This document shows, piece after piece, positions 13,741-24,738 of a DNA stretch of 32,015 bases. The stretch spans positions 1 through 32,015 of the forward strand of contig PAHI01000061.1 of the NCBI GenBank assembly GCA_002705575.1, written 5' to 3'. This DNA is from Fidelibacterota bacterium (lineage in GTDB: Bacteria > Marinisomatota > Marinisomatia > SCGC-AAA003-L08 > GCA-002719095). A program made the position numbers and the translations under genes. Every line of letters begins with the position of its first letter. Position 1 is the first letter of the stretch. The notes beneath the pieces are model-generated. The model saw only the letters and a list, made by a program, of their open reading frames with translations. It was not told where the DNA came from and made no database searches.

Positions 13741-15027
13741 CTACATAGAATCATCAACAACTTTATCTAATATATATATTCCAGCAATTAAAAGCAGACT
13801 AACAACAAGCATCCCAATCTCTTGTGAACCTGTAATTATAATCATAAGTGAAAGAATAAGAAATCCTGCAAATGATGTTGCTTTACCAGAGAAAGCATAA
13901 AAACCGTAAAACTCGCTTGTTTTTTCATGCGGAACAATACGCCCCATAAGAGATCTGCTCGCAGATTGATTGGGGCCAGATGCAATACCCATAATGATTC
14001 CTGCCAGCCAAAACCAGCCCTCATTAGAAGCAAGAACAGCTATCATGACAGCAGAAAAAATTGAATAATTGCTAATTTGTATTGTTCTTTTTGCTCCTAA
14101 TCTATCATCCAAAAAACCAAACACAAACGCCCCTAAGCCTGCAGCAACATTTATTCCTATGCCAAATAATAAAACCATCTGAATAGTCCATCCAAACTTT
14201 TCTCTAGCAAATATACCGCCAAAAGAAAAAATAGTCAGAATAGCATCATTATAAAGCATTCTTGCAATCAAGAACCTAACAATATTTTTATATTTTCTAA
14301 TTTCTCTAAAAGTCTTTAAAATCATTTCATAGGATTTTTTTATTGATATACTTTTCGAACGATCAACTTTTCTATCTTTTAAAAATATAAATGTTGGTAA
14401 AGAAAAAACAGCGAACCATATTGAAATAAAAATTGGCATAGCTCTAACATGCTCAAAAGTGTCTTTATTGAGAGTATTTCCTGTAAAAGGATTAACTGGC
14501 TGTTCTGGAAAATGAAACACAACCAAGCACAGAACTAAACCAATTAATCCACCTAAATAACCAAAAGACCATCCATATCCAGAAATACGACCAATTTTTT
14601 CTTTTGGAGCAATATCAGGTAAATACGAGTTACAAAAAACCTGCCCCATTTCAAATGCTGAATTTGAAATAATTACTAAAAAAAGGGCTAAAAAAACCTG
14701 GCCTTCAGTAGGGAAATATAAAAAAATACAACTAAGAATACATACCCATGTACATGAAATAAGGTATACTTTCCTATATCCGCTCCTATCTGCAATTGCT
14801 CCCATTAAAGGAGATAGCAGTGCAACTATAATTGCACATATAGAAATAGCAAAAAGCCATAGTGAGTCTGGATTAGAATAACTTGAAGCTAAATTTCCTG
14901 TAAAAAAAGCTGAATAAACAAAAGTAATAATTATTGTTGGATATGGTTGATTAGCAAAGTCATATATAGACCATGTAAAAATAGTTCTCCTATAATTCTT
15001 TGTATAATCCTCGATTTTTTCTTTCAT
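13741..15027 (-). CDS. UMF1/Atg22-type MFS transporter
   Basis: This 428-residue inner-membrane protein has about twelve hydrophobic segments. Its N-terminal TWSIYDFANQPYPTIIITFVY segment (the family's SWxxYDWANS-type motif; positions about 19-39) and the loop SPLMGAIADRSGYRK are typical of the UMF1 (Atg22-like) branch of the major facilitator superfamily. The substrate is unknown for most members. It is the last gene of the tight cluster with the NamZ and NagZ fusions, so transport of a muropeptide, sugar or amino acid product is a reasonable guess. It starts 12 bases after the small membrane ORF. The nearest GAGG is 14 bases before the ATG, longer than ideal, so translation may depend on coupling. 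Confidence 0.85.
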   Translation of the reverse strand: MKEKIEDYTKNYRRTIFTWSIYDFANQPYPTIIITFVYSAFFTGNLASSYSNPDSLWLFAISICAIIVALLSPLMGAIADRSGYRKVYLISCTWVCILSCIFLYFPTEGQVFLALFLVIISNSAFEMGQVFCNSYLPDIAPKEKIGRISGYGWSFGYLGGLIGLVLCLVVFHFPEQPVNPFTGNTLNKDTFEHVRAMPIFISIWFAVFSLPTFIFLKDRKVDRSKSISIKKSYEMILKTFREIRKYKNIVRFLIARMLYNDAILTIFSFGGIFAREKFGWTIQMVLLFGIGINVAAGLGAFVFGFLDDRLGAKRTIQISNYSIFSAVMIAVLASNEGWFWLAGIIMGIASGPNQSASRSLMGRIVPHEKTSEFYGFYAFSGKATSFAGFLILSLMIIITGSQEIGMLVVSLLLIAGIYILDKVVDDSM

Positions 15028-15038
15028 AGTTTATTAAT

Positions 15039-15170
15039 CTACCTCTTTTTATTGTTTAAAAGCTCTCTTATTTCAAAAAAACCTTTATACGACACATATG
15101 AAAAAAGGACTATAAATAAAAAAATTGAAATAAAAAAAACTACTTTCCAAAAATATATCCAAAAACTCAT
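15039..15170 (-). CDS. 43-residue single-pass membrane protein, possible symporter accessory subunit
   Basis: A short frame starts with ATG at 15170, overlapping the stop of the NamZ-symporter gene in an ATGA arrangement, and ends with TAG at 15041-15039. An AGGTAGG ribosome binding site lies at 15182-15176, five bases before the ATG. The product begins MSFWIYFWKVVFFISIFLFI, one membrane helix, and ends in a charged tail (KGFFEIRELLNNKKR). Very small single-pass proteins are encoded beside SSS symporters in various prokaryotes, so an accessory or stabilising subunit is likely. The tail, with its K-G-x-x-E-I-R-E-L pattern, resembles such proteins as I remember them, but I could not check. It sits between the fusion transporter and the MFS gene. 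Confidence 0.72.
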   Translation of the reverse strand: MSFWIYFWKVVFFISIFLFIVLFSYVSYKGFFEIRELLNNKKR

Positions 15171-17845
15171 TTTGACCTACCTGTAAATAATAATGGCCCA
15201 AAAAATGAGCCTATATACATCACTGCAATTGATAAAAAAACAACTATAATCCCAATTAAAGAAGAACTGATATCTATTTCTAAATAGTTTTTGATCGGAC
15301 TTAACCCAATTAAAGAAATTAGTCCACAAAATAAAGAACAGTAAGCTCCATACTTGTTAACGATACTAGAATATAGCCCTAGAACAACTAAAGATATAGC
15401 TCCTGAAAAATATACAGATCCAGTAATAGCTAAGTAGCCCCAGATATCGTCTGAGCCTTTGTAAAAAATTCCCCAATATAATATGTAAAAACCTAGCAAA
15501 ACTATAATGATACGAGATATAGTAATTTTTTTATCAGATGATATTTTACCTTTTTTTAATGGCGTAATTATATCATTTGTTATAATTGTACTCCAACATA
15601 ATAAATAACTATCATGAGTACTCATAAAGGCAGAAAGCATAGCAGCAATAACAAGTCCAACTACTCCAATTGGCAGTATTTCTCTTAAAAACGATGGCAT
15701 CCCTCCTAGAGATGTATCAGCTCCAAAACCGCTAGTCAAAACAATATCTCCTCTAAAATATACAAATGCACAAATACCTAAAAAACTAGGAACCATAAAT
15801 CTAATCATAAAGGATATCGAAGACCACATATATTGCTTTTTAACAGACTCAGAATCTTTCATAGCTAAGGCTCGAGTTGTAGCGGTCGGCCATATAACGC
15901 AGCTAACAAAAGCTAAAATAATCATCCAAAGTATATAATCATATCCAAAAGACGTATTTATCACAGGATTGAATGCTGGCTCACCAATACCCTTTTCTAA
16001 ATGACTAAATATATTATTCCAACCTACATAATAAATTGCCAAAAAAGTTGAAATTAATAGACCTAAGGAAAGCATAACAAATTGAATATAATCTGTAATT
16101 ATAACAGAAAGCATCCCTCCAAGCAAAGTATACATTAAAACAAGCACTAATAGAAAAAACATAATTAAGTGCAATCCTATTCCAATATCTCCAAATATTG
16201 CTTGAAGAAAAATTCCTCCAACCTTCAAGAATAAGCCCATATTTAATATTCCACCAATAACAAGAAAAAACGCTCCAAGAATTTGCACTTCCTTACCATA
16301 CCTTAATCCGTAAAACTCTGGAATACTTTTCACATTAAGATTCCTTAGCTTTGTAATAACAAAACCACTAAAACCTATACAAAGAGTTATAATAAAAGCA
16401 ATAAAACCAATATGAAAAGAAGCAAAATACCCACTCCAACCTTGCTGAGCATTATACATTACAGTAATTAACCCTAGCTCTGTTCCTGCCATTGATGCAA
16501 CACCTAAGCCGATCCCTATATTGCTATTAGCAATCATAAAGTCATTAAAAGTATTCACTCTGTTTTTAAGAAAAAACCCAATACAAAAAATTATTAAAAT
16601 GTAAATGATAATTATAAGCATATCAATAAGGCTTATTTGTTTTTTTATAGGATATATTAACGAATGCTCTCTTTTAATCTTGAAATTTTCTAGATCTATC
16701 GTGTTTGAATAAAACAATTGATTTAAATCATGCGATTCATTTATTGCAATTCTCAAATCAACGCCGCCATAAAGTTTATCAAAAAAATCTGAATTAAACT
16801 TAAAATCTTCTTTGTGATTTTTATATATCTCGGAGATTATCTGTACACCAACAATAAATGGATTAACCTTTAAATAGTCACTAATATGAATCTGAATTCC
16901 ATTACACTCAATTCCACTATACTTAGATTTACTAGGTGTATATTTTCTCTGAGAAAAAGAAACTCCTTCTAAATTTAAATTATTAAGCCTAAAAGCTATA
17001 TGCTCACTATTAAGCCAGGGGGAACCAAGCAACATAAAAGGTGAATCTGTTCCTCTTCCCTCAGATACATTTGTCCCTTCTAACAAACAAGTACCCAGAT
17101 ACATTAAAGCAGTTTTTTTATCTTTAATATTAGGAGAAGGAGAAATCCAATTTTTATCATAATTAATATCCCATTCATCTCTATTCCAACCATGCACCTT
17201 AATAACCTTTAAATCAAGATTTTTAGAGCCTTCAATTAAACCGTTACGCTTAATAAACAAAGCTATTTCTCCAATTGTCATGCCATGCCTAACAGGTATA
17301 GGATGCATACCTACAAAAGAGCTGAAATCTAAATCTAAAACAGAACCCTGAACAATATTTCCTCCAATAGGATTTGGGCGGTCCAAAACAATAAATTGAA
17401 GATTATTTTGTGACGCTTTTTCCATAGCAAGCGTCATTGTACTAACATATGTGTAATAACGAACACCGATATCTTGTATATCAAAAATCAATATATCTAA
17501 ATCTTGTAAATCAACGGCTTGAGGTGATTTATTTTTTCCATATAAACTTATAATTTCTATTCCATGATTAGAGTCTACATCATTTTCAATATTTTCTCCT
17601 GCACTTCTTTTTCCTAAAAAGCCATGCTCTGGAGAAAAAATTCTAACAAGATCAACTTTTTGATCAATTAAAATATCAACTAAATGCTTATCTTGAGAGT
17701 TCACAGAAGTATGATTAGCTATCACTCCAACTCTTTTATTATTTAAAAGAGACATATGATTTATTTCAAGGGCATCTAAACCAACATAAAAACTAAAAGC
17801 TGCTTGATAAAAAAATAAAAATAATATTTTTTTTAAGAATCTAAT
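15167..17845 (-). CDS. namZ: Exported NamZ (GH171) exo-beta-N-acetylmuramidase fused to an SSS sodium/solute symporter
   Basis: Two complete proteins in one chain. Numbered from the proposed ATT start (892 residues), 1-25 form a signal peptide (MRFLKKILFLFF...). Residues 22-395 are a full DUF1343/NamZ domain with the motifs FSPEHGF (Glu73), DIQDIGVRYYTY, VLDRPNPIGG, VRHGMTIGE, SPSPN and EGTNVSEGRGT, and its usual end. Residues 400-892 are an SSS symporter with about 12-13 helices and the sodium-site-like stretch MLSAFMSTHDSYLLCWS. NamZ releases terminal MurNAc from peptidoglycan fragments. The first ATG (17755) would give 862 residues but deletes the signal peptide and the first NamZ strand (GLDALEINH), and has no ribosome binding site. 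Symporter N-termini normally face outward, which fits a periplasmic NamZ. It overlaps the preceding symporter gene. Confidence 0.85.
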   Translation of the reverse strand: MRFLKKILFLFFYQAAFSFYVGLDALEINHMSLLNNKRVGVIANHTSVNSQDKHLVDILIDQKVDLVRIFSPEHGFLGKRSAGENIENDVDSNHGIEIISLYGKNKSPQAVDLQDLDILIFDIQDIGVRYYTYVSTMTLAMEKASQNNLQFIVLDRPNPIGGNIVQGSVLDLDFSSFVGMHPIPVRHGMTIGEIALFIKRNGLIEGSKNLDLKVIKVHGWNRDEWDINYDKNWISPSPNIKDKKTALMYLGTCLLEGTNVSEGRGTDSPFMLLGSPWLNSEHIAFRLNNLNLEGVSFSQRKYTPSKSKYSGIECNGIQIHISDYLKVNPFIVGVQIISEIYKNHKEDFKFNSDFFDKLYGGVDLRIAINESHDLNQLFYSNTIDLENFKIKREHSLIYPIKKQISLIDMLIIIIYILIIFCIGFFLKNRVNTFNDFMIANSNIGIGLGVASMAGTELGLITVMYNAQQGWSGYFASFHIGFIAFIITLCIGFSGFVITKLRNLNVKSIPEFYGLRYGKEVQILGAFFLVIGGILNMGLFLKVGGIFLQAIFGDIGIGLHLIMFFLLVLVLMYTLLGGMLSVIITDYIQFVMLSLGLLISTFLAIYYVGWNNIFSHLEKGIGEPAFNPVINTSFGYDYILWMIILAFVSCVIWPTATTRALAMKDSESVKKQYMWSSISFMIRFMVPSFLGICAFVYFRGDIVLTSGFGADTSLGGMPSFLREILPIGVVGLVIAAMLSAFMSTHDSYLLCWSTIITNDIITPLKKGKISSDKKITISRIIIVLLGFYILYWGIFYKGSDDIWGYLAITGSVYFSGAISLVVLGLYSSIVNKYGAYCSLFCGLISLIGLSPIKNYLEIDISSSLIGIIVVFLSIAVMYIGSFFGPLLFTGRSK

Positions 17846-19256
17846 TCTCTAATCTCCTAATTAATAAGTCGATAATACATGCAATAAGGAAATTGCTAAT
17901 TATTGAAATACCAATGAAATATTCCCAACTGATGTCGAAATATGCAAGAACAAGAAGGAGAAGAATTGAGAAAATATAGCCTACCTTAATACTTTCCTTT
18001 AGAAAAGAAATATCTAGTCTAGCAAATATAAAGAGACTAATTAACCCTCCATATGTAAATGAAACAATTTTTAAACATAATACAATAATTGATGATTCAG
18101 GATCATACTCAAATATCATGCAAAAAAGTGTCAATAAAGCACCCCATAAAACTGAAGCTAACATAGACCTATTTAAGTTCACCTTTCCTTCAAAGATATC
18201 AATTATGGTAGACGACGCCAATGAATTTATTGAAGAGCTGAGGGATGACATTGCTGCAGATAGAGCTCCTGCAAGCATAATGCCTTTTAAACCAGATGGA
18301 ATATAGTCTATAATATATTGAGTAAATATATTGTTAGAATTAATAGATGAATTAAAAAATCCTCCGTTAAGAATCAATGTTCCAACACAAAGAAATATTG
18401 AAAATTGAATTAAAACAAAAACACCACTACCAATCATAGCTTTTCTAGCGCTAGATATGTCTTTAGTGCTAAGAACACGCTGAACCATTAAATAATCGAT
18501 ACCATGAGACCCTATCGACATTAAAGCTCCTGCAAGAACAGACATCAAAACTCCCTGTAAAGAAAAAAAGCTTACTGAGCCACTTAAAACTTCTAAAAAA
18601 CCATTATCATATATTTTTTGATAATTAAAAGAATTGCTTGCAGCAATATAAAAAACATCCTGATTAAGAATATGAAAAATAGCAATCAAACCACATGATA
18701 AATAAATAAAAAACTGAAATCCATCAACCCACAATATTGTCTTTAATCCACCCATTGAAGAATAAAAAATTGTAATTATTCCAATTGCTAGAATAGAGAA
18801 ATCTAAATTCCAGCCAGTAATGGTGCTGACAATGCCTGCTGTTGCTAAAAAACGCACACCGTCTGCAAAAAGACGGGTTATTAAAAATGTCAGAGATGCC
18901 ATTTTTTGATTAAATTTTCCAAACTTAAATCCTATAATCTGATAGATAGATACAATTCCTTCCTTATAATACATTGGAAGAAAAAAATAACTAACCAATA
19001 TGCGGCCAAAAATATAGCCAAAAACAACCTGTAAAAAATTCCAGTTTGCTTTTGAATAGGATATAGCAGGAATACCAACAAATGTCAAAACTGAAGTCTC
19101 AGTAGCAACAATTGAAAGCATAACAACAAACCAGTGCATACTTTTACCTGCCAAAAAATATGAATTATTATTTTTAATATTTCTTTTCTGATATATTGAA
19201 AAAAGCATAATCCCTGCAAAGAAAAAAATAATAATTATATTATCTAAAAGAGTCAA
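17841..19256 (-). CDS. SSS-family sodium/solute symporter
   Basis: This 471-residue inner-membrane protein of the solute:sodium symporter family has about 13 hydrophobic helices. Family features include SYFLAGKSMHWFVVMLSIVA near the N-terminus (residues 32-51), the FVGIPA segment, YYKEGIVSIYQIIGFKFGKF after helix 3, and the sodium-site region LSAAMSSLSSSINSLAS. The start is TTG with AGGA six bases upstream (19266-19263). It lies eight bases after the NagZ fusion gene and overlaps the start of the NamZ-symporter gene, so it is part of the same operon. The substrate is not readable from sequence; an amino sugar or muropeptide product is the contextual guess, sialic acid and sugars being common substrates of relatives. 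Confidence 0.9.
   Translation of the reverse strand: MTLLDNIIIIFFFAGIMLFSIYQKRNIKNNNSYFLAGKSMHWFVVMLSIVATETSVLTFVGIPAISYSKANWNFLQVVFGYIFGRILVSYFFLPMYYKEGIVSIYQIIGFKFGKFNQKMASLTFLITRLFADGVRFLATAGIVSTITGWNLDFSILAIGIITIFYSSMGGLKTILWVDGFQFFIYLSCGLIAIFHILNQDVFYIAASNSFNYQKIYDNGFLEVLSGSVSFFSLQGVLMSVLAGALMSIGSHGIDYLMVQRVLSTKDISSARKAMIGSGVFVLIQFSIFLCVGTLILNGGFFNSSINSNNIFTQYIIDYIPSGLKGIMLAGALSAAMSSLSSSINSLASSTIIDIFEGKVNLNRSMLASVLWGALLTLFCMIFEYDPESSIIVLCLKIVSFTYGGLISLFIFARLDISFLKESIKVGYIFSILLLLVLAYFDISWEYFIGISIISNFLIACIIDLLIRRLEN
17843..17858 (-). promoter_or_regulatory. Ribosome binding site plus ATT start codon for namZ-symporter
   Basis: AGGAGA (17858-17853) lies seven bases before ATT (17845-17843), which opens the signal peptide MRFLKK. 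The frame upstream of the first ATG contains no ATG, GTG or TTG after its preceding stop at 17851-17849. Confidence 0.55.
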
Positions 19257-19264
19257 ATTTAATC

Positions 19265-22138
19265 CTATTCCAAGATAAGAGCTTCACTTGAAGCTAAAAG
19301 AGTTTTCATAACCTCATTATGAAAACTTCTTCTTACGTTATAAATCCCCTTTTTCTCTCTAGTTGGATAAACTCGGTTAGTTAGAAGGATAACTATAATT
19401 TTATTTTTTTTATCTGCCCATACAGATGTTCCTGTGAATCCTAAATGTCCAAAGCTATAATTTGAAAAAAAATCTCCTGCAGAACTTTTAGATTTAGAAG
19501 GTGTATCCCAACCAATAGCAAAATCCGAATTAAGAGAATCTTTATCGGTAATTGTTTTTTTTACAGCCAACTTATCAAAATGGCGCCTGCCTAACCAAAC
19601 TCCATCATTTAAAAAAGTTTTTGTAAAAATAGCTATATCCCAAGCATTTGAGAATAATCCTGCATGAGCTGATACTCCACCCATCAGATAGGTATTCTCA
19701 TCATGCACTTGCCCTTTAATCATTTTTTTCCTATATATTGAATCATACTCAGTAGGAACTATGTTGCCGATTTTTTCTTGAGAGGGCATGTAATATGTAT
19801 TTATCATATTCAAAGGCTTATAAATCCAGTTTGAAGATAATCTTGAAAAACTAGACCTATTTTCTAATTCAATAATATTTTTTAATAGGATGAAACCTAA
19901 ATCGCTATATTCATGATCTGTTCCCGGCTCAAAAATCAAATCCCTTTTTAAAATATCATAAAGGATATCCTGCTCATCTTTAATATGATTCATGTTAAAA
20001 TATTCTATATAACCTTTTATGCCAGAAGAATGATTTAATAAATGCTTTATTCTTACTTTATTTTTGTATTTTCCTTTAAATTCCGGATAATACTCATAGA
20101 TATAGCTATTCATTGATAGCTTTTTCTTCTGTTCTGATTTCATCGTTAGTGGCAACGCTGATAATACTTTTGTAATAGAAGCTATATCATAAACAGACGA
20201 AGTATCTACAAGAATTGAATTATCTTCATATGTATAATGGCCAAAACCTTTATGAGCAACGATATTTTCATCTTTTGATATAAATACCTGCGCTCCTGGG
20301 AATATTTTATTACTTATAGCACTGTCTATTACTGCAAAAGCTTTGTCTAAATTATATTTATTAACATCTTTTTTTTTGAATTCTGATAATCTTTTAGACC
20401 TATAAACACCGGTACCTCTAGTGTATTTTTTACTTAAATCTATAGGAAGCTTTCCTGAAATATCTTCTCTTCCAAATACAGCGTTCGCAGCTGCTTTAAC
20501 ACTTATAGGTCCATATCCATACGTTGCAATATATGCATCAGAATAATCATATGAATCCATATAAGGGCTACCAAAACTAACTAATAAATTAGGTATATTT
20601 ATTTTCTCCTTAATCATCTTCAAGAGCCTTAAATGCGAAGGGTGAATAGTAGAAACACCTTTATCCATTCGGATTCTAACTAAACTTGACACAATCAAAA
20701 AATCTGAATCTTTTATTTTTTCAATGATTTTTTCTATCAAATAGTTATCTAATTCGTAATTAATAAAAACCTCATCTACATTATTAAAAGTTCTATAAAC
20801 ATCCTTTGAAAAAGATTTTAGATAATCTTTAGCATTGTCATCTATAGACATAATTATATGAGATATTTTTTTCAACTTCTCTGGCTTTAAAGGAATAGAA
20901 TTCAAATCATCTTTAACAAGCGTTATTGAATTTGCAGCTATATAATTAGCAACTTTAGAATGTGAATTAGATCCAACTAATGACTCAACTCTTTCCCATT
21001 CTGGAAGACCTTTACCACTAAATAAACCTGCCTCTTTTTTTAAGTTCCAAATTTTTTCAACAGACTGATTAATCCTATCTTCTGATATCCTGCCATTCTC
21101 AAGGGCAATCTTTATTGATTTTATTGCATTCTTAGTATCAATTGGCAATAATATAATATCAGCGCCTGCCTCAATTGCTCTTACAACAGATTCTCCATTA
21201 GATATATTTTTACTCAATGCACCCATTTCCATTGCATCGGTAATAACCACTCCCTTAAATCCTAATTCATTCTTCAAAATCTCTGTTGTAATTTTATATG
21301 AATGAGTGGCAGGCTTATAAGATGAGTCTAAAGAAGGTACAACTAAATGCCCCATCATAATCATTTTAATGCTATCTTGAATAGCTTTTTTAAAAGGAAT
21401 AATTTCATTTTTATACAAAACATCATCAGATACGTTGATTACTGGCAAGGATGAATGACTATCTATTTCTGTATCACCATGGCCAGGAAAATGTTTTCCA
21501 CATGCAAATACACCTTGACTTTGGATACCTTTTATGAAACTAATACCATATCTTGAAACTACTTCAGGGGTGTCTCCATAAGATCTAAGATTTATAATCG
21601 GATTTTTAGAATTATTATTAATATCAAGTACCGGAGCAAAAACCATATGAACACCAATAGATTTAGCTTCTTTTGCGATAATTTCTCCTTGGAGATATGA
21701 GTTTTTCGGATTATTAGTTGACGATACTGCCATATTGCTAGGAAATAAAGTACCTCCATCCATCCATTGACCAAGTCCTCTTTCATAATCTGAACCTATA
21801 ATAAGAGGGCTATCTGACCAGCTTTGAAACAAATTTATATTATGAAAAGCTCCATGTATATCAGCATAATACATAATCAAGCCACCAATCTTATGATTAA
21901 CAATCAAGTCTTGAATTGAATTATATCTATAATCTTCTCTATTATAAAATTTTCCAGATACTCTAATCATAATCATTTGACCTATTTTTTCATCAATAGA
22001 TAACATTTTCCAAGAATTATAATTTTTTTTTGAATCTAAATTATACATCGTTTTTGAATTTTTAGAATTAGAGCAATAAGAAAAGAATAGACAACAAACA
22101 GCTACAATAAAAATTCTAAATATTATTTTTTGAATCAT
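19265..22138 (-). CDS. nagZ: Exported NagZ (GH3) beta-N-acetylglucosaminidase fused to a serine beta-lactamase-fold domain
   Basis: This is a 957-residue exported enzyme. The N-terminus (IIFRIFIVAVCCLFFSYC) looks like a signal peptide, perhaps a lipoprotein with Cys22, although the lipobox is poor. Residues 45-375 are a GH3 domain of NagZ type: KHFPGHGDTEIDSH at 215-228 holds the NagZ-specific Asp-His acid/base pair, and Asp301 in VITDAMEM is the expected nucleophile. A GH3 C-terminal domain follows (about 395-570). Residues 600-950 are a beta-lactamase/transpeptidase-like domain with SxxK at 654-657 (SITK), YSD at 744-746 and HLGFTG at 898-903. NagZ removes GlcNAc from muropeptides. In Bacillus the beta-lactamase-fold AmiE beside NagZ removes the peptide from MurNAc, so this fusion may do both steps. 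Similar GH3/beta-lactamase fusions occur in Bacteroidetes. Confidence 0.92.
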   Translation of the reverse strand: MIQKIIFRIFIVAVCCLFFSYCSNSKNSKTMYNLDSKKNYNSWKMLSIDEKIGQMIMIRVSGKFYNREDYRYNSIQDLIVNHKIGGLIMYYADIHGAFHNINLFQSWSDSPLIIGSDYERGLGQWMDGGTLFPSNMAVSSTNNPKNSYLQGEIIAKEAKSIGVHMVFAPVLDINNNSKNPIINLRSYGDTPEVVSRYGISFIKGIQSQGVFACGKHFPGHGDTEIDSHSSLPVINVSDDVLYKNEIIPFKKAIQDSIKMIMMGHLVVPSLDSSYKPATHSYKITTEILKNELGFKGVVITDAMEMGALSKNISNGESVVRAIEAGADIILLPIDTKNAIKSIKIALENGRISEDRINQSVEKIWNLKKEAGLFSGKGLPEWERVESLVGSNSHSKVANYIAANSITLVKDDLNSIPLKPEKLKKISHIIMSIDDNAKDYLKSFSKDVYRTFNNVDEVFINYELDNYLIEKIIEKIKDSDFLIVSSLVRIRMDKGVSTIHPSHLRLLKMIKEKINIPNLLVSFGSPYMDSYDYSDAYIATYGYGPISVKAAANAVFGREDISGKLPIDLSKKYTRGTGVYRSKRLSEFKKKDVNKYNLDKAFAVIDSAISNKIFPGAQVFISKDENIVAHKGFGHYTYEDNSILVDTSSVYDIASITKVLSALPLTMKSEQKKKLSMNSYIYEYYPEFKGKYKNKVRIKHLLNHSSGIKGYIEYFNMNHIKDEQDILYDILKRDLIFEPGTDHEYSDLGFILLKNIIELENRSSFSRLSSNWIYKPLNMINTYYMPSQEKIGNIVPTEYDSIYRKKMIKGQVHDENTYLMGGVSAHAGLFSNAWDIAIFTKTFLNDGVWLGRRHFDKLAVKKTITDKDSLNSDFAIGWDTPSKSKSSAGDFFSNYSFGHLGFTGTSVWADKKNKIIVILLTNRVYPTREKKGIYNVRRSFHNEVMKTLLASSEALILE

Positions 22139-22141
22139 ACC

Positions 22142-23113
22142 TTAATATTCTACCGCTGGATTGTTGCCCACTATTTTCTTTTTATTTACTTTCATCGATT
22201 TAAGATCAGCGCATAAAAGACCTGCAGCATAGGATGGACATATATCTAAAAAAAGCCACTTTATATCAACAAAATCAAAGCTTAGGGAATTATTTAAATC
22301 AGAACGAAAGTAATCATTTTTTATAATACTACCATTTGCTGCAATAATAATATTTTTACTACCATATCCAAGTAAATCTTTTAATTCTAAAATATAATCT
22401 CCAATAATTCTTGTTGCTTGTTGAACTATAGATACAGCGATTTCATTGCCATTTTCTGCTTCTAATATTACTGTTTTTGCAAATGAGCTCAATAAAGAAA
22501 CTTTGTTTTCAGAATCATTTATTTTAGTTATTAAATCATCATAATTATTAACATTAAAATGTCCAAGAGCTAATTTATTCATTTTATCTATATCTGATTT
22601 AAAAACAGACTCATTTAAACCTATTTCAACAATAGCTTCTTTAGCTATCCAATACCCACTTCCAATATCTCCTTTATCGTGACCTTTTCCTGCAACTTTT
22701 ATAAAACTATTTTCTTTTTTCGCAATACATGCAATCCCTGTCCCAACATTAACTAAAATTCCCTGCCTACTTCCTAGCATAAAATTATAAACAGATTCTA
22801 CATCGCTAGTTATAATAGATTTACTTGATAATTTTAAATTATCTAAAAGACCAAACAATCTCTGCCTACCAGTTTCATTTGAAGCTCCAGCCAGAGCTAT
22901 CCCAACTGCGGAAAAATCATTTATGTCAATATTTGATTCTTTTGATAAATCTACGATTAAATCAACTACAATTTTAGCTGAAGATTTTTCATTAACAGAA
23001 ATATTTGACCCACAAGTTATTTTATGCGCAATAGTCTGACCAGAATCATTAAAAACAACTCCTCTAGTTTTTGATGCTCCACCATCTATACCTATAATGT
23101 ATTTATGATTCAT
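22142..23113 (-). CDS. BadF/BadG/BcrA/BcrD-type amino sugar kinase (GlcNAc or MurNAc kinase)
   Basis: This 323-residue ASKHA-fold ATPase opens with the phosphate-1 motif IGIDGGASKTRG (7-18), followed by GSNISVN, VGIALAGAS, the phosphate-2 stretch VNVGTGIACIA, and the family motif DKGDIGSGYWIAKEAI. These match the BadF/BadG/BcrA/BcrD family in its amino sugar kinase branch, which includes human NAGK and the bacterial MurK enzymes that phosphorylate MurNAc and GlcNAc. It lies three bases before the NagZ fusion and overlaps the ABC permease by 11 bases. The context favours phosphorylation of imported GlcNAc and/or MurNAc. MurNAc-6-phosphate would then need MurQ, which is not in the window. Confidence 0.88.
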   Translation of the reverse strand: MNHKYIIGIDGGASKTRGVVFNDSGQTIAHKITCGSNISVNEKSSAKIVVDLIVDLSKESNIDINDFSAVGIALAGASNETGRQRLFGLLDNLKLSSKSIITSDVESVYNFMLGSRQGILVNVGTGIACIAKKENSFIKVAGKGHDKGDIGSGYWIAKEAIVEIGLNESVFKSDIDKMNKLALGHFNVNNYDDLITKINDSENKVSLLSSFAKTVILEAENGNEIAVSIVQQATRIIGDYILELKDLLGYGSKNIIIAANGSIIKNDYFRSDLNNSLSFDFVDIKWLFLDICPSYAAGLLCADLKSMKVNKKKIVGNNPAVEY

Positions 23114-23816
23114 TTTCTCTACTTACCAAGGTTACTGCTAAATAACTCAAAAGCCCACAAACTATAATAGCAATAGTATACCATAATAGAGCAGGAAAAA
23201 GATTTATTTCATTATTGGCATTCAAAACATCTGAAGAAACAACAACTATAGAATATATAATGTTATATTCTGATGAATTATCTAATGGCAGAAGCCTGCA
23301 ATACTGTACAAAAGAAACACATATTAATAACAGACTAATAAAACTAACATTATAAATATTATAGATGCTAGAAATAATACCAATAAAAAAACAACTAGAA
23401 ACAATAGGCACTATTTTTATAAACAAAAAAATAAAATCTAAGATAGAAATAGATATGTTATTAATTAACATCGTAAATAAAAATGAAATAATTAATTCTA
23501 AAAATGCAATAAATAAAGAAATCAACATACCAGAAAAAAGCAAACCGAACATAGATATAGGTTGATTAAAAATAAAACTTCTTTTTTTACTCAATGCCTG
23601 ATTTGAAAAAAAATCATATACATACATATAAGAACATATAATAGGAGATGATATCCAAATACCCACAGAAGACCAAATCTTTATTTGCTCATCCATGAAA
23701 GGAACTACATTTATTAAATATAAAGCCATAGGCACTATAAATAAAACAAGCAAGTATTTAACATGTAAATTCTTTAGAACAAACATATTTTTAATTAATA
23801 TAATACTACTCATCAT
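23103..23816 (-). CDS. ABC-2-like membrane permease (partner of the upstream ATPase)
   Basis: This is a 237-residue, very hydrophobic protein with about six membrane helices and no soluble domain, in the size range of ABC-2-type permeases. I recognise no specific family motif. It overlaps the end of the ABC ATPase gene and its start is decided by GAGG at 23827-23824, seven bases before the ATG at 23816; an earlier in-frame start at 23852 would add 12 residues (MRMFFYHRRGNI) and is less likely. Gene order indicates that it forms a transporter or a regulated membrane complex with the ATPase. The substrate is unknown. It could be linked to the downstream salvage genes only by shared transcription. 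Confidence 0.72.
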   Translation of the reverse strand: MMSSIILIKNMFVLKNLHVKYLLVLFIVPMALYLINVVPFMDEQIKIWSSVGIWISSPIICSYMYVYDFFSNQALSKKRSFIFNQPISMFGLLFSGMLISLFIAFLELIISFLFTMLINNISISILDFIFLFIKIVPIVSSCFFIGIISSIYNIYNVSFISLLLICVSFVQYCRLLPLDNSSEYNIIYSIVVVSSDVLNANNEINLFPALLWYTIAIIVCGLLSYLAVTLVSRENES

Positions 23817-24738
23817 TATATTTCCTCGTCTGTGATAAAAAAACATCCTCAAAATTAAAAGGCCTATTTTGCATATCTAAAAGATCATTTGGCAATGAAT
23901 TTTTAAATATATCAAAAAAAGTTTTTTTATCTGAACAATAAAACTCCATCTCATTTCTTTTAATCCTAACATGATATAAATTGTCATTCAAGCGTACTTC
24001 AGAACTAAATTTTTTACTAATATTACTTTTAAATATCAGTTTATAATAACCATAACTTTCGGTTTTATCCATTATATCTTTAATGCTACCATTCAATCTT
24101 ATTTTGCCTTTATCTAAAAAAGCAATTCTATCAGAGTAAGACTCAACTTCATTAAAATCATAAGATGTGTATATAATTGTTGAATACTTTAATGTTGTAT
24201 TAATAAGACTCCACAACCACTTTTTGTTTTCTGAGTCTAGACCAAATGAAGGTTTATCTATTAATAAGTATTCAGGGCTAGAGGCAAGCGCTCTTGAGAT
24301 TTGAATAAGCCTTAGCTTACTATATTCAACTTCAGAAATCATAGAATACAATATATGCGAGAAGCCTAATATATTTGACCAGTGATATATATTATGCTTA
24401 ATTTCATTTGAAGTTTTCTTTGATACTAGCCTTAAATAAATATACAAATTCTGATAAACATTTAGATTATAATCAAAGTCAATATAATCTGGAATGTAGC
24501 ATATTTTTCGTCTTACTTTAACAGATTCTCTTGTTAAAGAATTCCCATCAATAAATATTTTCCCTGAATCTACATTAATAATACCTGCAATTATTTTTAA
24601 CAATACGGATTTACCGCAACCATTAACACCTACAATAGATAATGTCTGATTTTTTTCAAGCCCCAAATCACAATCTGCAATAATTGTTTTACCATTTATT
24701 TGTTTAGCTACTGATTGTAAGGATATTATTGCAGGCAT
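23806..24738 (-). CDS. ABC-type ATPase with degenerate catalytic motifs
   Basis: This 310-residue ABC nucleotide-binding protein has a normal Walker A (GVNGCGKS, 37-44) and D-loop (FGLD, 165-168). The other catalytic elements are altered. The Q-loop glutamine position holds Asp84 (YIPDYIDF), the LSGGQ signature reads VEYSK (137-141), the Walker B glutamate is replaced by Lys162 (LLIDKP), and the switch histidine is Tyr193 (TSYDFNE). Such a protein would probably bind ATP but hydrolyse it poorly or not at all. A C-terminal extension (about 225-310) is not conserved in ordinary ABC ATPases. The gene follows polA by six bases and precedes the permease. Whether it pairs with an active ATPase elsewhere or acts as a non-hydrolytic switch is unknown. 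Confidence 0.85.
   Translation of the reverse strand: MPAIISLQSVAKQINGKTIIADCDLGLEKNQTLSIVGVNGCGKSVLLKIIAGIINVDSGKIFIDGNSLTRESVKVRRKICYIPDYIDFDYNLNVYQNLYIYLRLVSKKTSNEIKHNIYHWSNILGFSHILYSMISEVEYSKLRLIQISRALASSPEYLLIDKPSFGLDSENKKWLWSLINTTLKYSTIIYTSYDFNEVESYSDRIAFLDKGKIRLNGSIKDIMDKTESYGYYKLIFKSNISKKFSSEVRLNDNLYHVRIKRNEMEFYCSDKKTFFDIFKNSLPNDLLDMQNRPFNFEDVFLSQTRKYNDE

What the first reader, a model, noticed from the sequence alone, without database searches (positions are those of the whole stretch)
15167..17845. Peptidoglycan hydrolase (GH171 NamZ) fused to its likely uptake transporter
A complete exo-muramidase domain is joined in one chain to a complete SSS symporter. The NamZ part ends normally before the first symporter helix, so this is a genuine two-domain protein rather than a truncated remnant. 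With the signal peptide, the hydrolase would sit in the periplasm at the mouth of the transporter and could hand over released MurNAc directly. I know of secreted NamZ and separate transporters in Bacillus and Tannerella, but not of a characterised fusion.
Basis: partly seen in the sequence, partly recalled or inferred. Interest (0 to 1): 0.72.

Follow-up and report, generated by a model that had tools for sequence, protein, structure and literature searches.

The report
Cell-wall-eating enzyme fused to sugar pump
A marine bacterium carries an enzyme that clips sugars off bacterial cell walls built in one chain with a sodium-driven membrane pump, and related bacteria have joined the same kind of enzyme to other pumps more than once, which suggests that tying the cutter to the importer is useful.

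Summary
The fusion is real. Window 15167-17755 (-), open upstream past an ATT at 17845, encodes complete NamZ_N and NamZ_C domains and a sodium:solute symporter (SSF2) in one frame. The locus belongs to Ca. Neomarinimicrobiota. Relatives have namZ and SSF2 as separate genes; here the stop codon and SSF2's start codon (ATG to ATA) are both lost, leaving a five-residue linker. A second protein cluster of 11 sequences has the same fusion (P0003); none of 245 genomes of the phylum showed it in the listed matches. In 14 of 245 genomes NamZ is instead fused, in opposite order, to the other neighbouring symporter, SSF1; one origin is rejected (p 3e-41). Four more carry a NamZ-SSF1-like fusion, two an SSF1-beta-lactamase-like fusion. 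SSF1, not the fused SSF2, has the better MurNAc case: it follows NamZ in 8 of 8 Bacteroidota loci fetched, some with AmgK- and MurU-like genes ahead, as ybbC precedes murT in Tannerella (PMC5388701 passages). SSF2's substrate and any direct hand-over are untested. New variant of a known kind.

The parts
15167..17845 (-). NamZ-SSF2 fusion gene as read from the ATT codon (892 aa; 862 aa from ATG 17755)
   Evidence: ATT start inferred
17854..17858 (-). AGGAG, Shine-Dalgarno-like, 8 bases before ATT 17845
   Evidence: read
17756..17845 (-). signal-peptide-like N-terminus (IRFLKKILFLFFYQAAFSFY...), ATT start overlapping the SSF1 stop TAG (17841-17843)
   Evidence: role inferred
17120..17731 (-). 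NamZ_N domain (residues 9-212)
16652..17107 (-). NamZ_C domain (residues 217-368)
16637..16651 (-). linker PIKKQ (residues 369-373); L001 has a stop codon here
16634..16636 (-). ATA (Ile374) at the place of the SSF2 start ATG of relatives
15170..16636 (-). symporter SSF2 (residues 374-862; Pfam SSF 442-811)
17841..19256 (-). SSF1, second sodium:solute symporter; MurT-like by position and family; partner of NamZ in most fusions of relatives
19265..22138 (-). GH3 (NagZ/YbbD-like) joined to a serine beta-lactamase-like domain (AmiE-like by recall)
22142..23113 (-). BadF-type amino-sugar kinase, closest solved match a MurNAc/GlcNAc kinase (8zo3)
13741..15027 (-). MFS transporter (Atg22-like), next to the same locus in relatives

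Best explanation
This is the membrane end of a peptidoglycan-sugar salvage operon (amino-sugar kinase, NagZ plus beta-lactamase-like domain, symporter SSF1, NamZ, symporter SSF2, MFS). Shown: NamZ is intact in its conserved residues and is joined in frame to SSF2 by loss of the stop and start codons between two neighbouring genes; related genomes join the same enzyme instead to SSF1, more than once, or leave it free. Inferred: NamZ is exported through its N-terminal hydrophobic stretch, works in the periplasm, and is held at the inner membrane by the symporter's first helix, so that MurNAc is released beside the two symporters rather than diffusing away; SSF1 takes up MurNAc, SSF2 takes up another product of the same digestion (GlcNAc is my guess) or also MurNAc; the kinase and MurQ (present in relatives) then feed the sugars into metabolism. 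The functional point is tethering the cutter to the importers; which side it is tied to matters less.
For: Domains and conserved residues. Junction DNA: L001 TAG ATG CAT CTT ATT GAT against window CCT ATA AAA AAA CAA ATA AGC CTT ATT GAT; 12 of 13 related loci were printed and all 12 have an ATG for SSF2; all 13 have NamZ and SSF2 in separate frames. Same fusion in P0003, grouped with the window at 100%. Operon: closest solved relatives are YbbD/NagZ (3bmx, 3e-75) and a MurNAc/GlcNAc kinase (8zo3, 1e-16). SSF1-NamZ in one frame in 14 of 245 genomes and 73 of 120 listed proteins, three of them short; 4 changes of state on a tree of 23 loci, at least 3 forced, one clade rejected. NamZ-SSF1-like fusions in 4 genomes, SSF1-beta-lactamase-like in 2 (Pfam run on 3 of the 4 and 1 of the 2). 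NamZ directly ahead of the SSF1 orthologue in 8 of 8 Bacteroidota loci fetched; AmgK/MurU-like genes ahead. MurQ over cut-off in 19 of 23 relatives, AnmK in 18 of 23. Model of an SSF1-NamZ fusion: pLDDT 85, symporter half like SiaT (TM 0.84), NamZ half like 4k05 (0.88).
Against: No expression or activity data. SSF2's substrate is unknown; its aligned pocket lacks SiaT's carboxylate ligands Ser60 and Arg135 (Gly, Asn), which speaks against an acidic sugar such as MurNAc, and its relatives elsewhere show no peptidoglycan neighbours. SSF1 also lacks Arg135 (Gly) and Gln82 (Pro). KK in the linker lies on the side predicted to be outside, against the positive-inside rule. The NamZ-SSF2 form is rare (none in the listed matches of 245 genomes), and even SSF1-NamZ is in only 14 of 245. 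The start codon is non-standard. The AmgK and MurU matches are below their cut-offs, and in L137 MurU leads a mannose-1-phosphate guanylyltransferase model by 1 bit. The structure model of the window protein is poor in its symporter half (mean pLDDT 64), so nothing is known of how the two parts face each other.
Confidence: 0.62

Rival explanations
1. The fusions are neutral read-throughs: neighbouring co-directed genes with compatible topology lose the codons between them now and then, and joining the enzyme to the pump has no effect on function.
For: The genes are neighbours already, order and topology allow both joins, and separate genes are common: 5 of 13 close loci, and only 14 of 245 genomes of the phylum have SSF1-NamZ in one frame; close sisters differ (L008 fused, L003 separate).
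Against: More than one origin, on both sides of NamZ, and a similar join with a beta-lactamase-like domain point to selection; whole clades keep the fusion; the window lost the SSF2 start codon, so the joined form is probably obligatory there.
Confidence: 0.22
2. The true product is SSF1-NamZ-SSF2 in one chain of about 1,360 residues, made by a +1 ribosomal frameshift at the SSF1 end; the ATT is not a start.
For: Neither window nor L001 has an ATG, GTG or TTG ahead of the NamZ domain's start for an exported form; both have NamZ in the +1 frame overlapping the SSF1 end; a related clade joins SSF1 and NamZ in frame.
Against: Overlaps are short (8 and 26 bases) and by eye share no slippery sequence; ATT sits on the SSF1 stop in both, with AGGAG at good distance in the window; three other separate relatives start NamZ with an ATG overlapping the SSF1 stop, a fourth with GTG or ATG just before it. 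No triple fusion among the 120 listed proteins.
Confidence: 0.1
3. Assembly or sequencing error joined two genes.
For: The window is one contig without a held genome.
Against: Same fusion in a separate cluster of 11 sequences, 67% identical in NamZ, with a similar linker (HIKKK against PIKKQ); the window also has the start codon changed, which a single indel would not explain.
Confidence: 0.02
4. NamZ is only anchored: the symporter part serves as membrane anchor and no longer transports.
For: SSF2 differs from SiaT at Na2 residues Ala56 (Gly) and Ser343 (Thr); weak, since Ala56 binds through its backbone (PMC5931594 passage) and SSF1 also has Thr at 343.
Against: The SSF2 half is up to 77% identical to free SSF2 proteins over its whole length, without gaps in the core, so it looks equally constrained.
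Confidence: 0.04

Closest known systems
NamZ exo-beta-N-acetylmuramidase, GH171 (B. subtilis YbbC; T. forsythia NamZ1, NamZ2; B. fragilis 4k05, 4jja)
   Same: Both Pfam domains in full, conserved residues kept but one, nearest solved structures 4k05 and 4jja
   Different: Known members are free secreted or exported enzymes (recalled; the NamZ1/NamZ2 paper was seen only in a reference list); here fused to a symporter
Tannerella forsythia ybbC-murT-murK-murQ operon
   Same: ybbC (NamZ) directly ahead of a sodium-symporter-superfamily MurNAc transporter, with kinase and etherase (PMC5388701 and PMC5790795 passages)
   Different: Separate genes there; identity of SSF1 to TfMurT not compared, its sequence was not at hand
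B. subtilis amiE-nagZ-namZ (ybbE-ybbD-ybbC) salvage set
   Same: Same activities by family; the window GH3 part is closest to YbbD
   Different: Bacillus uses a PTS (recalled); here symporters plus kinase, and the GH3 is joined to the beta-lactamase-like domain
SiaT, sodium/sialic acid symporter (5nv9)
   Same: Closest solved sequence of the Bacteroidota SSF1 (9.6e-36) and closest symporter fold of the SSF1-NamZ model (TM 0.84)
   Different: For the window SSF1 itself the best match is the iodide symporter (5e-24), SiaT sixth (2.8e-20); for SSF2 SGLT1 is first, SiaT second. Arg135 is Gly in SSF1, with Arg at -3 and +4; Asn in SSF2
SLC5/STAC sensor kinases (CbrA, CrbS/MxtR)
   Same: An SSS symporter joined to another functional domain (PMC7918813 passages)
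   Different: Joined at the C-terminus to signalling domains, not to a periplasmic hydrolase

Membership tests
NamZ / GH171 exo-muramidase | NamZ_N and NamZ_C domains over cut-off and full length | tested here: met
   (263.9 and 147.3 bits; cut-offs 26.9 and 25)
NamZ / GH171 exo-muramidase | family-conserved residues, including the PEHG Glu (catalytic role recalled) | tested here: met
   all columns at least 97% conserved kept but Phe272 (Tyr)
NamZ / GH171 exo-muramidase | release of MurNAc from non-reducing ends | not testable with these tools
   needs an assay
SSS (SLC5) sodium:solute symporter | SSF domain over cut-off | tested here: met
   (100.9 bits, cut-off 22.8); the NCBIfam superfamily model sss scores 136.1, below its cut-off of 184
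SSS (SLC5) sodium:solute symporter | 13-helix LeuT-type fold with outside N-terminus | tested here: inconclusive
   SSF2 aligns to SiaT residues 8-449; 12 hydrophobic peaks; the AF2 model of this half is unreliable
SSS (SLC5) sodium:solute symporter | Na2 residues (Ala56, Leu59, Ala339, Ser342, Ser343 of SiaT) | tested here: inconclusive
   SSF2 has Gly, Leu, Ala, Ser, Thr
MurT-type MurNAc transporter (claimed for fused SSF2) | neighbourhood of MurNAc genes in other phyla | tested here: not met
   SSF2: no NamZ, kinase or GH3 match in 61 loci outside Neomarinimicrobiota; an APH/NTP pair there is unrelated to the AmgK/MurU-like pair. In Neomarinimicrobiota it does lie beside NamZ
MurT-type MurNAc transporter (for SSF1) | sodium-symporter-family gene beside namZ and MurNAc kinase genes | tested here: met
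   8 of 8 Bacteroidota loci fetched beside NamZ; neighbours scanned in 4: kinase and nucleotidyltransferase in L134, L135, L137, kinase (only gene of the pair scanned) in L139; AmgK and MurU best models in L135 and L137, both under the cut-offs
MurT-type MurNAc transporter (for SSF1) | orthology to T. forsythia MurT | not tested
   MurT sequence not at hand; the 2016 paper is not held

The most novel reading that the evidence does not exclude
Selection has repeatedly built one-chain cutter-importer units from NamZ and sodium symporters, on either side of the enzyme and with different symporters, because MurNAc freed beside the pump is captured before it can diffuse out; in the window NamZ may sit between SSF1 and SSF2 as the hub of a two-pump salvage complex.
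Probability: 0.35. Interest if true: 0.78.

Novelty: new variant of a known kind. Interest (0 to 1): 0.6.

Why it matters
Fidelibacter multiformis, the described isolate of this phylum, lives on cell-wall fragments of other bacteria (PMC11652737 passages); how the uncultured marine members take up such fragments I do not know from print. Recurrent hydrolase-symporter fusions give a concrete, testable device for it, and a possible case in which the product of a periplasmic enzyme is passed to a secondary transporter within one chain. They also give a Rosetta-stone argument for the substrate of a symporter family (SSF1) shared with Bacteroidota.

Tried and rejected
Triple fusion: none among 120 listed proteins. 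Viral origin: 41 stretches matched a pattern in viral contigs, none encoded a relative. Plasmids: 55 records match, none covers 80% of the query. Peptidoglycan auxotrophy as in Fidelibacter: not supported for these relatives, MurA over cut-off in 21 of 23 genomes and MurB in 16 of 23 (draft genomes, so misses may be gaps). AmgK/MurU-like pair beside SSF2 in Planctomycetota: similar Pfam names, no similarity. Alignment A2 seemed to put NamZ-only proteins on the symporter (14-19% identity) and was dropped; A3 replaced it. The AF2 model of the window fusion is too weak in the symporter half to judge the interface. Open-frame figures suggested fusions in G184 and G185 that the DNA did not show. 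Long frames around symporter or NamZ matches in other phyla (for example G322, 1074 aa; G936, 1298 aa) were not looked at, so other fusions there are not excluded. Print: six searches with NamZ, DUF1343 or YbbC and transporter or symporter words, or for hydrolase-symporter fusions, showed none in the listings, which are capped (for example 20 of 2,923); one more found no paper. The library lacks most subscription papers, and the founding NamZ and MurT papers are not held, so a description there cannot be excluded.
Full report
What is there. On the minus strand at 15167-17755 lies one open frame of 862 codons from its first ATG. Pfam finds NamZ_N (residues 9-212), NamZ_C (217-368) and SSF (442-811), all over their cut-offs. 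Compared with 119 listed homologues the NamZ part keeps every column that is at least 97% conserved, save Phe272, which is Tyr. The nearest solved structures are 4k05 and 4jja for NamZ and, by sequence, SGLT1 and SiaT for SSF2.

The N-terminus. The frame is open to 17848 and reads a signal-peptide-like stretch, but without ATG, GTG or TTG before 17755. ATT at 17845 overlaps the TAG of the upstream symporter gene and is preceded by AGGAG at 8 bases. In L001, the nearest genome locus, NamZ shows the same ATT-on-stop layout; L003, L009 and L016 have an ATG overlapping the SSF1 stop, L017 a GTG and an ATG just before it. I take ATT as the likely start; a frameshift from SSF1 is the rival.

Origin and synteny. 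A scan of named genomes found the locus in Candidatus Neomarinimicrobiota (the best 80 of 196 related stretches were returned). In 13 loci (L001-L011, L016, L017) SSF1, NamZ and SSF2 stand in a row; PolA lies upstream in 12 (L007 begins inside the GH3 gene) and the MFS gene downstream in 13. Arrangements: SSF1-NamZ fused with SSF2 separate, 8 of 13; all three separate, 5 of 13; NamZ-SSF2 fused, 0 of 13. The window is the third form.

How the fusion arose. Free SSF2 proteins begin at the place of window residue 374. In L001 NamZ ends with a stop directly before ATG CAT CTT ATT GAT; in the window the stop is gone, the five codons CCT ATA AAA AAA CAA stand there and the ATG is ATA. P0003, a protein with 11 member sequences, has the same fusion with linker HIKKK and keeps the Met. 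Window and P0003 group at 100%, with L001 next at 100%, so this fusion arose once in what I could see. Among the listed matches in 245 genomes of the phylum none runs over both halves without a stop; the two longest read through one stop each (mostly three candidates scored per genome, list cut).

A wider pattern. Of the 120 listed homologues of the NamZ half, 73 have SSF1 in front of NamZ (3 of these are short), 2 have NamZ in front of SSF2 (the window and P0003) and 45 have no symporter match (7,975 proteins passed the E-value limit, only 120 are listed). Searched with an SSF1-NamZ protein, 14 of 245 genomes have it in one frame without a stop. A tree of 23 of 24 loci (one near-copy left out) needs 4 changes of the fused state, at least 3 forced by strong branches; one clade is rejected at p 3.3e-41 (LG+G4, five rows with odd composition, and I had seen an earlier tree, when I ran the test). 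Gain and loss cannot be told apart by count. In four genomes (L125-L128) a diverged NamZ (29-30% identity) stands in front of an SSF1-like symporter (35-38%) in one frame of 880-916 codons, and in two (L123, L124) SSF1 carries a C-terminal beta-lactamase-like domain; Pfam confirms this for L125, L126, L128 and L123, the ones scanned. Among the listed rows for 395 Bacteroidota and 294 Planctomycetota genomes I saw no one-frame SSF1-NamZ fusion (limit 1e-60, the Bacteroidota list cut, long frames there not examined).

Which symporter carries MurNAc. Bacteroidota have SSF1 orthologues with up to 62% identity to the query's symporter half. In 8 of 8 loci fetched, chosen from the strongest matches, NamZ lies directly ahead of SSF1. 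In L134, L135 and L137 a kinase and a nucleotidyltransferase precede it, and in L139, where of the pair only the kinase was scanned, a kinase; for L135 and L137 the best NCBIfam models are AmgK (120 and 110 bits, cut-off 550) and MurU (140 and 134 bits, cut-off 250), in L137 one bit ahead of a mannose-1-phosphate guanylyltransferase model. [quoted passage not shown] Mapped on SiaT, the Bacteroidota SSF1 of L135 keeps Ser60 and Thr63, loses Gln82 and Arg135, and has Arg at -3 and +4 of Arg135; SSF2 keeps Thr63 but has Gly at 60 and Asn at 135 (ligands from PMC5931594, passages). The two Arg are invariant in 39 SSF1-NamZ proteins (R113, R120 of P0018). SSF2 relatives in 61 loci of other groups show no NamZ, kinase or GH3 match. 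So the fused partner in the window is not the symporter with the better MurNAc case; its substrate is open.

Topology. SSS proteins have an outside N-terminus, and SiaT an inside C-terminus (PMC7918813 legend; PMC5931594 passage). An exported NamZ can therefore be joined directly to SSF2, and can be joined behind SSF1 if its own signal peptide becomes an extra helix. A hydrophobic stretch is present at that place in the three SSF1-NamZ proteins tested (P0016 468-486, P0018 450-468, P0026 462-480). The model of P0018 is fairly confident (pLDDT 85.3, pTM 0.71) and both halves match known folds; P0018 lacks part of the first helix. The model of the window protein is good only in NamZ.

Pathway. 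The operon has a kinase closest, among solved structures, to a MurNAc/GlcNAc kinase (NCBIfam NagK 65.8 bits, cut-off 370) and a GH3 protein closest to YbbD/NagZ with a beta-lactamase-like tail. MurQ passes its cut-off in 19 of 23 related genomes and AnmK in 18. MurA and MurB pass in 21 and 16 of 23, so unlike Fidelibacter these lineages probably still make peptidoglycan; salvage would be for carbon, energy or recycling.

Judgement. Tethering is strongly suggested; hand-over is not shown; the partner's substrate is unknown. Known families in a new architecture: new variant of a known kind.

Noticed in passing
L125:2052-4799, L126:3648-6317, L127:3506-6175, L128:3685-6324: Diverged NamZ joined in front of an SSF1-like symporter; in all four a second, free NamZ gene and an MFS match follow (Pfam run on L125, L126, L128)
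   Followed up: partly
L123:1273-3930, L124:1559-4216: SSF1-type symporter with a C-terminal Beta-lactamase2 (PF13354) domain (Pfam run on L123 only)
   Followed up: partly
window 19265-22138: NagZ-like GH3 domain and serine beta-lactamase-like domain in one chain, also in the 13 close relatives
   Followed up: partly
window 17843-17845 and L001:9860-9862: ATT as apparent start of NamZ, overlapping the stop of the gene before it, in two genomes
   Followed up: partly
window 13741-15027: Atg22-like MFS transporter kept downstream of the locus; possible further salvage transporter
   Followed up: no
L002:4560-5639: Extra gene between kinase and GH3 gene, absent in window and L001; a similar gap is seen in several relatives; looks like alanine racemase (recalled, not scanned)
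   Followed up: no
proteins P0070, P0058, P0015: NamZ also occurs joined to MurQ-type SIS domains, to GH3 and to beta-lactamase domains (precomputed Pfam)
   Followed up: no
window 23103-23852: No Pfam match; overlaps an ABC ATPase gene, probably its permease
   Followed up: no
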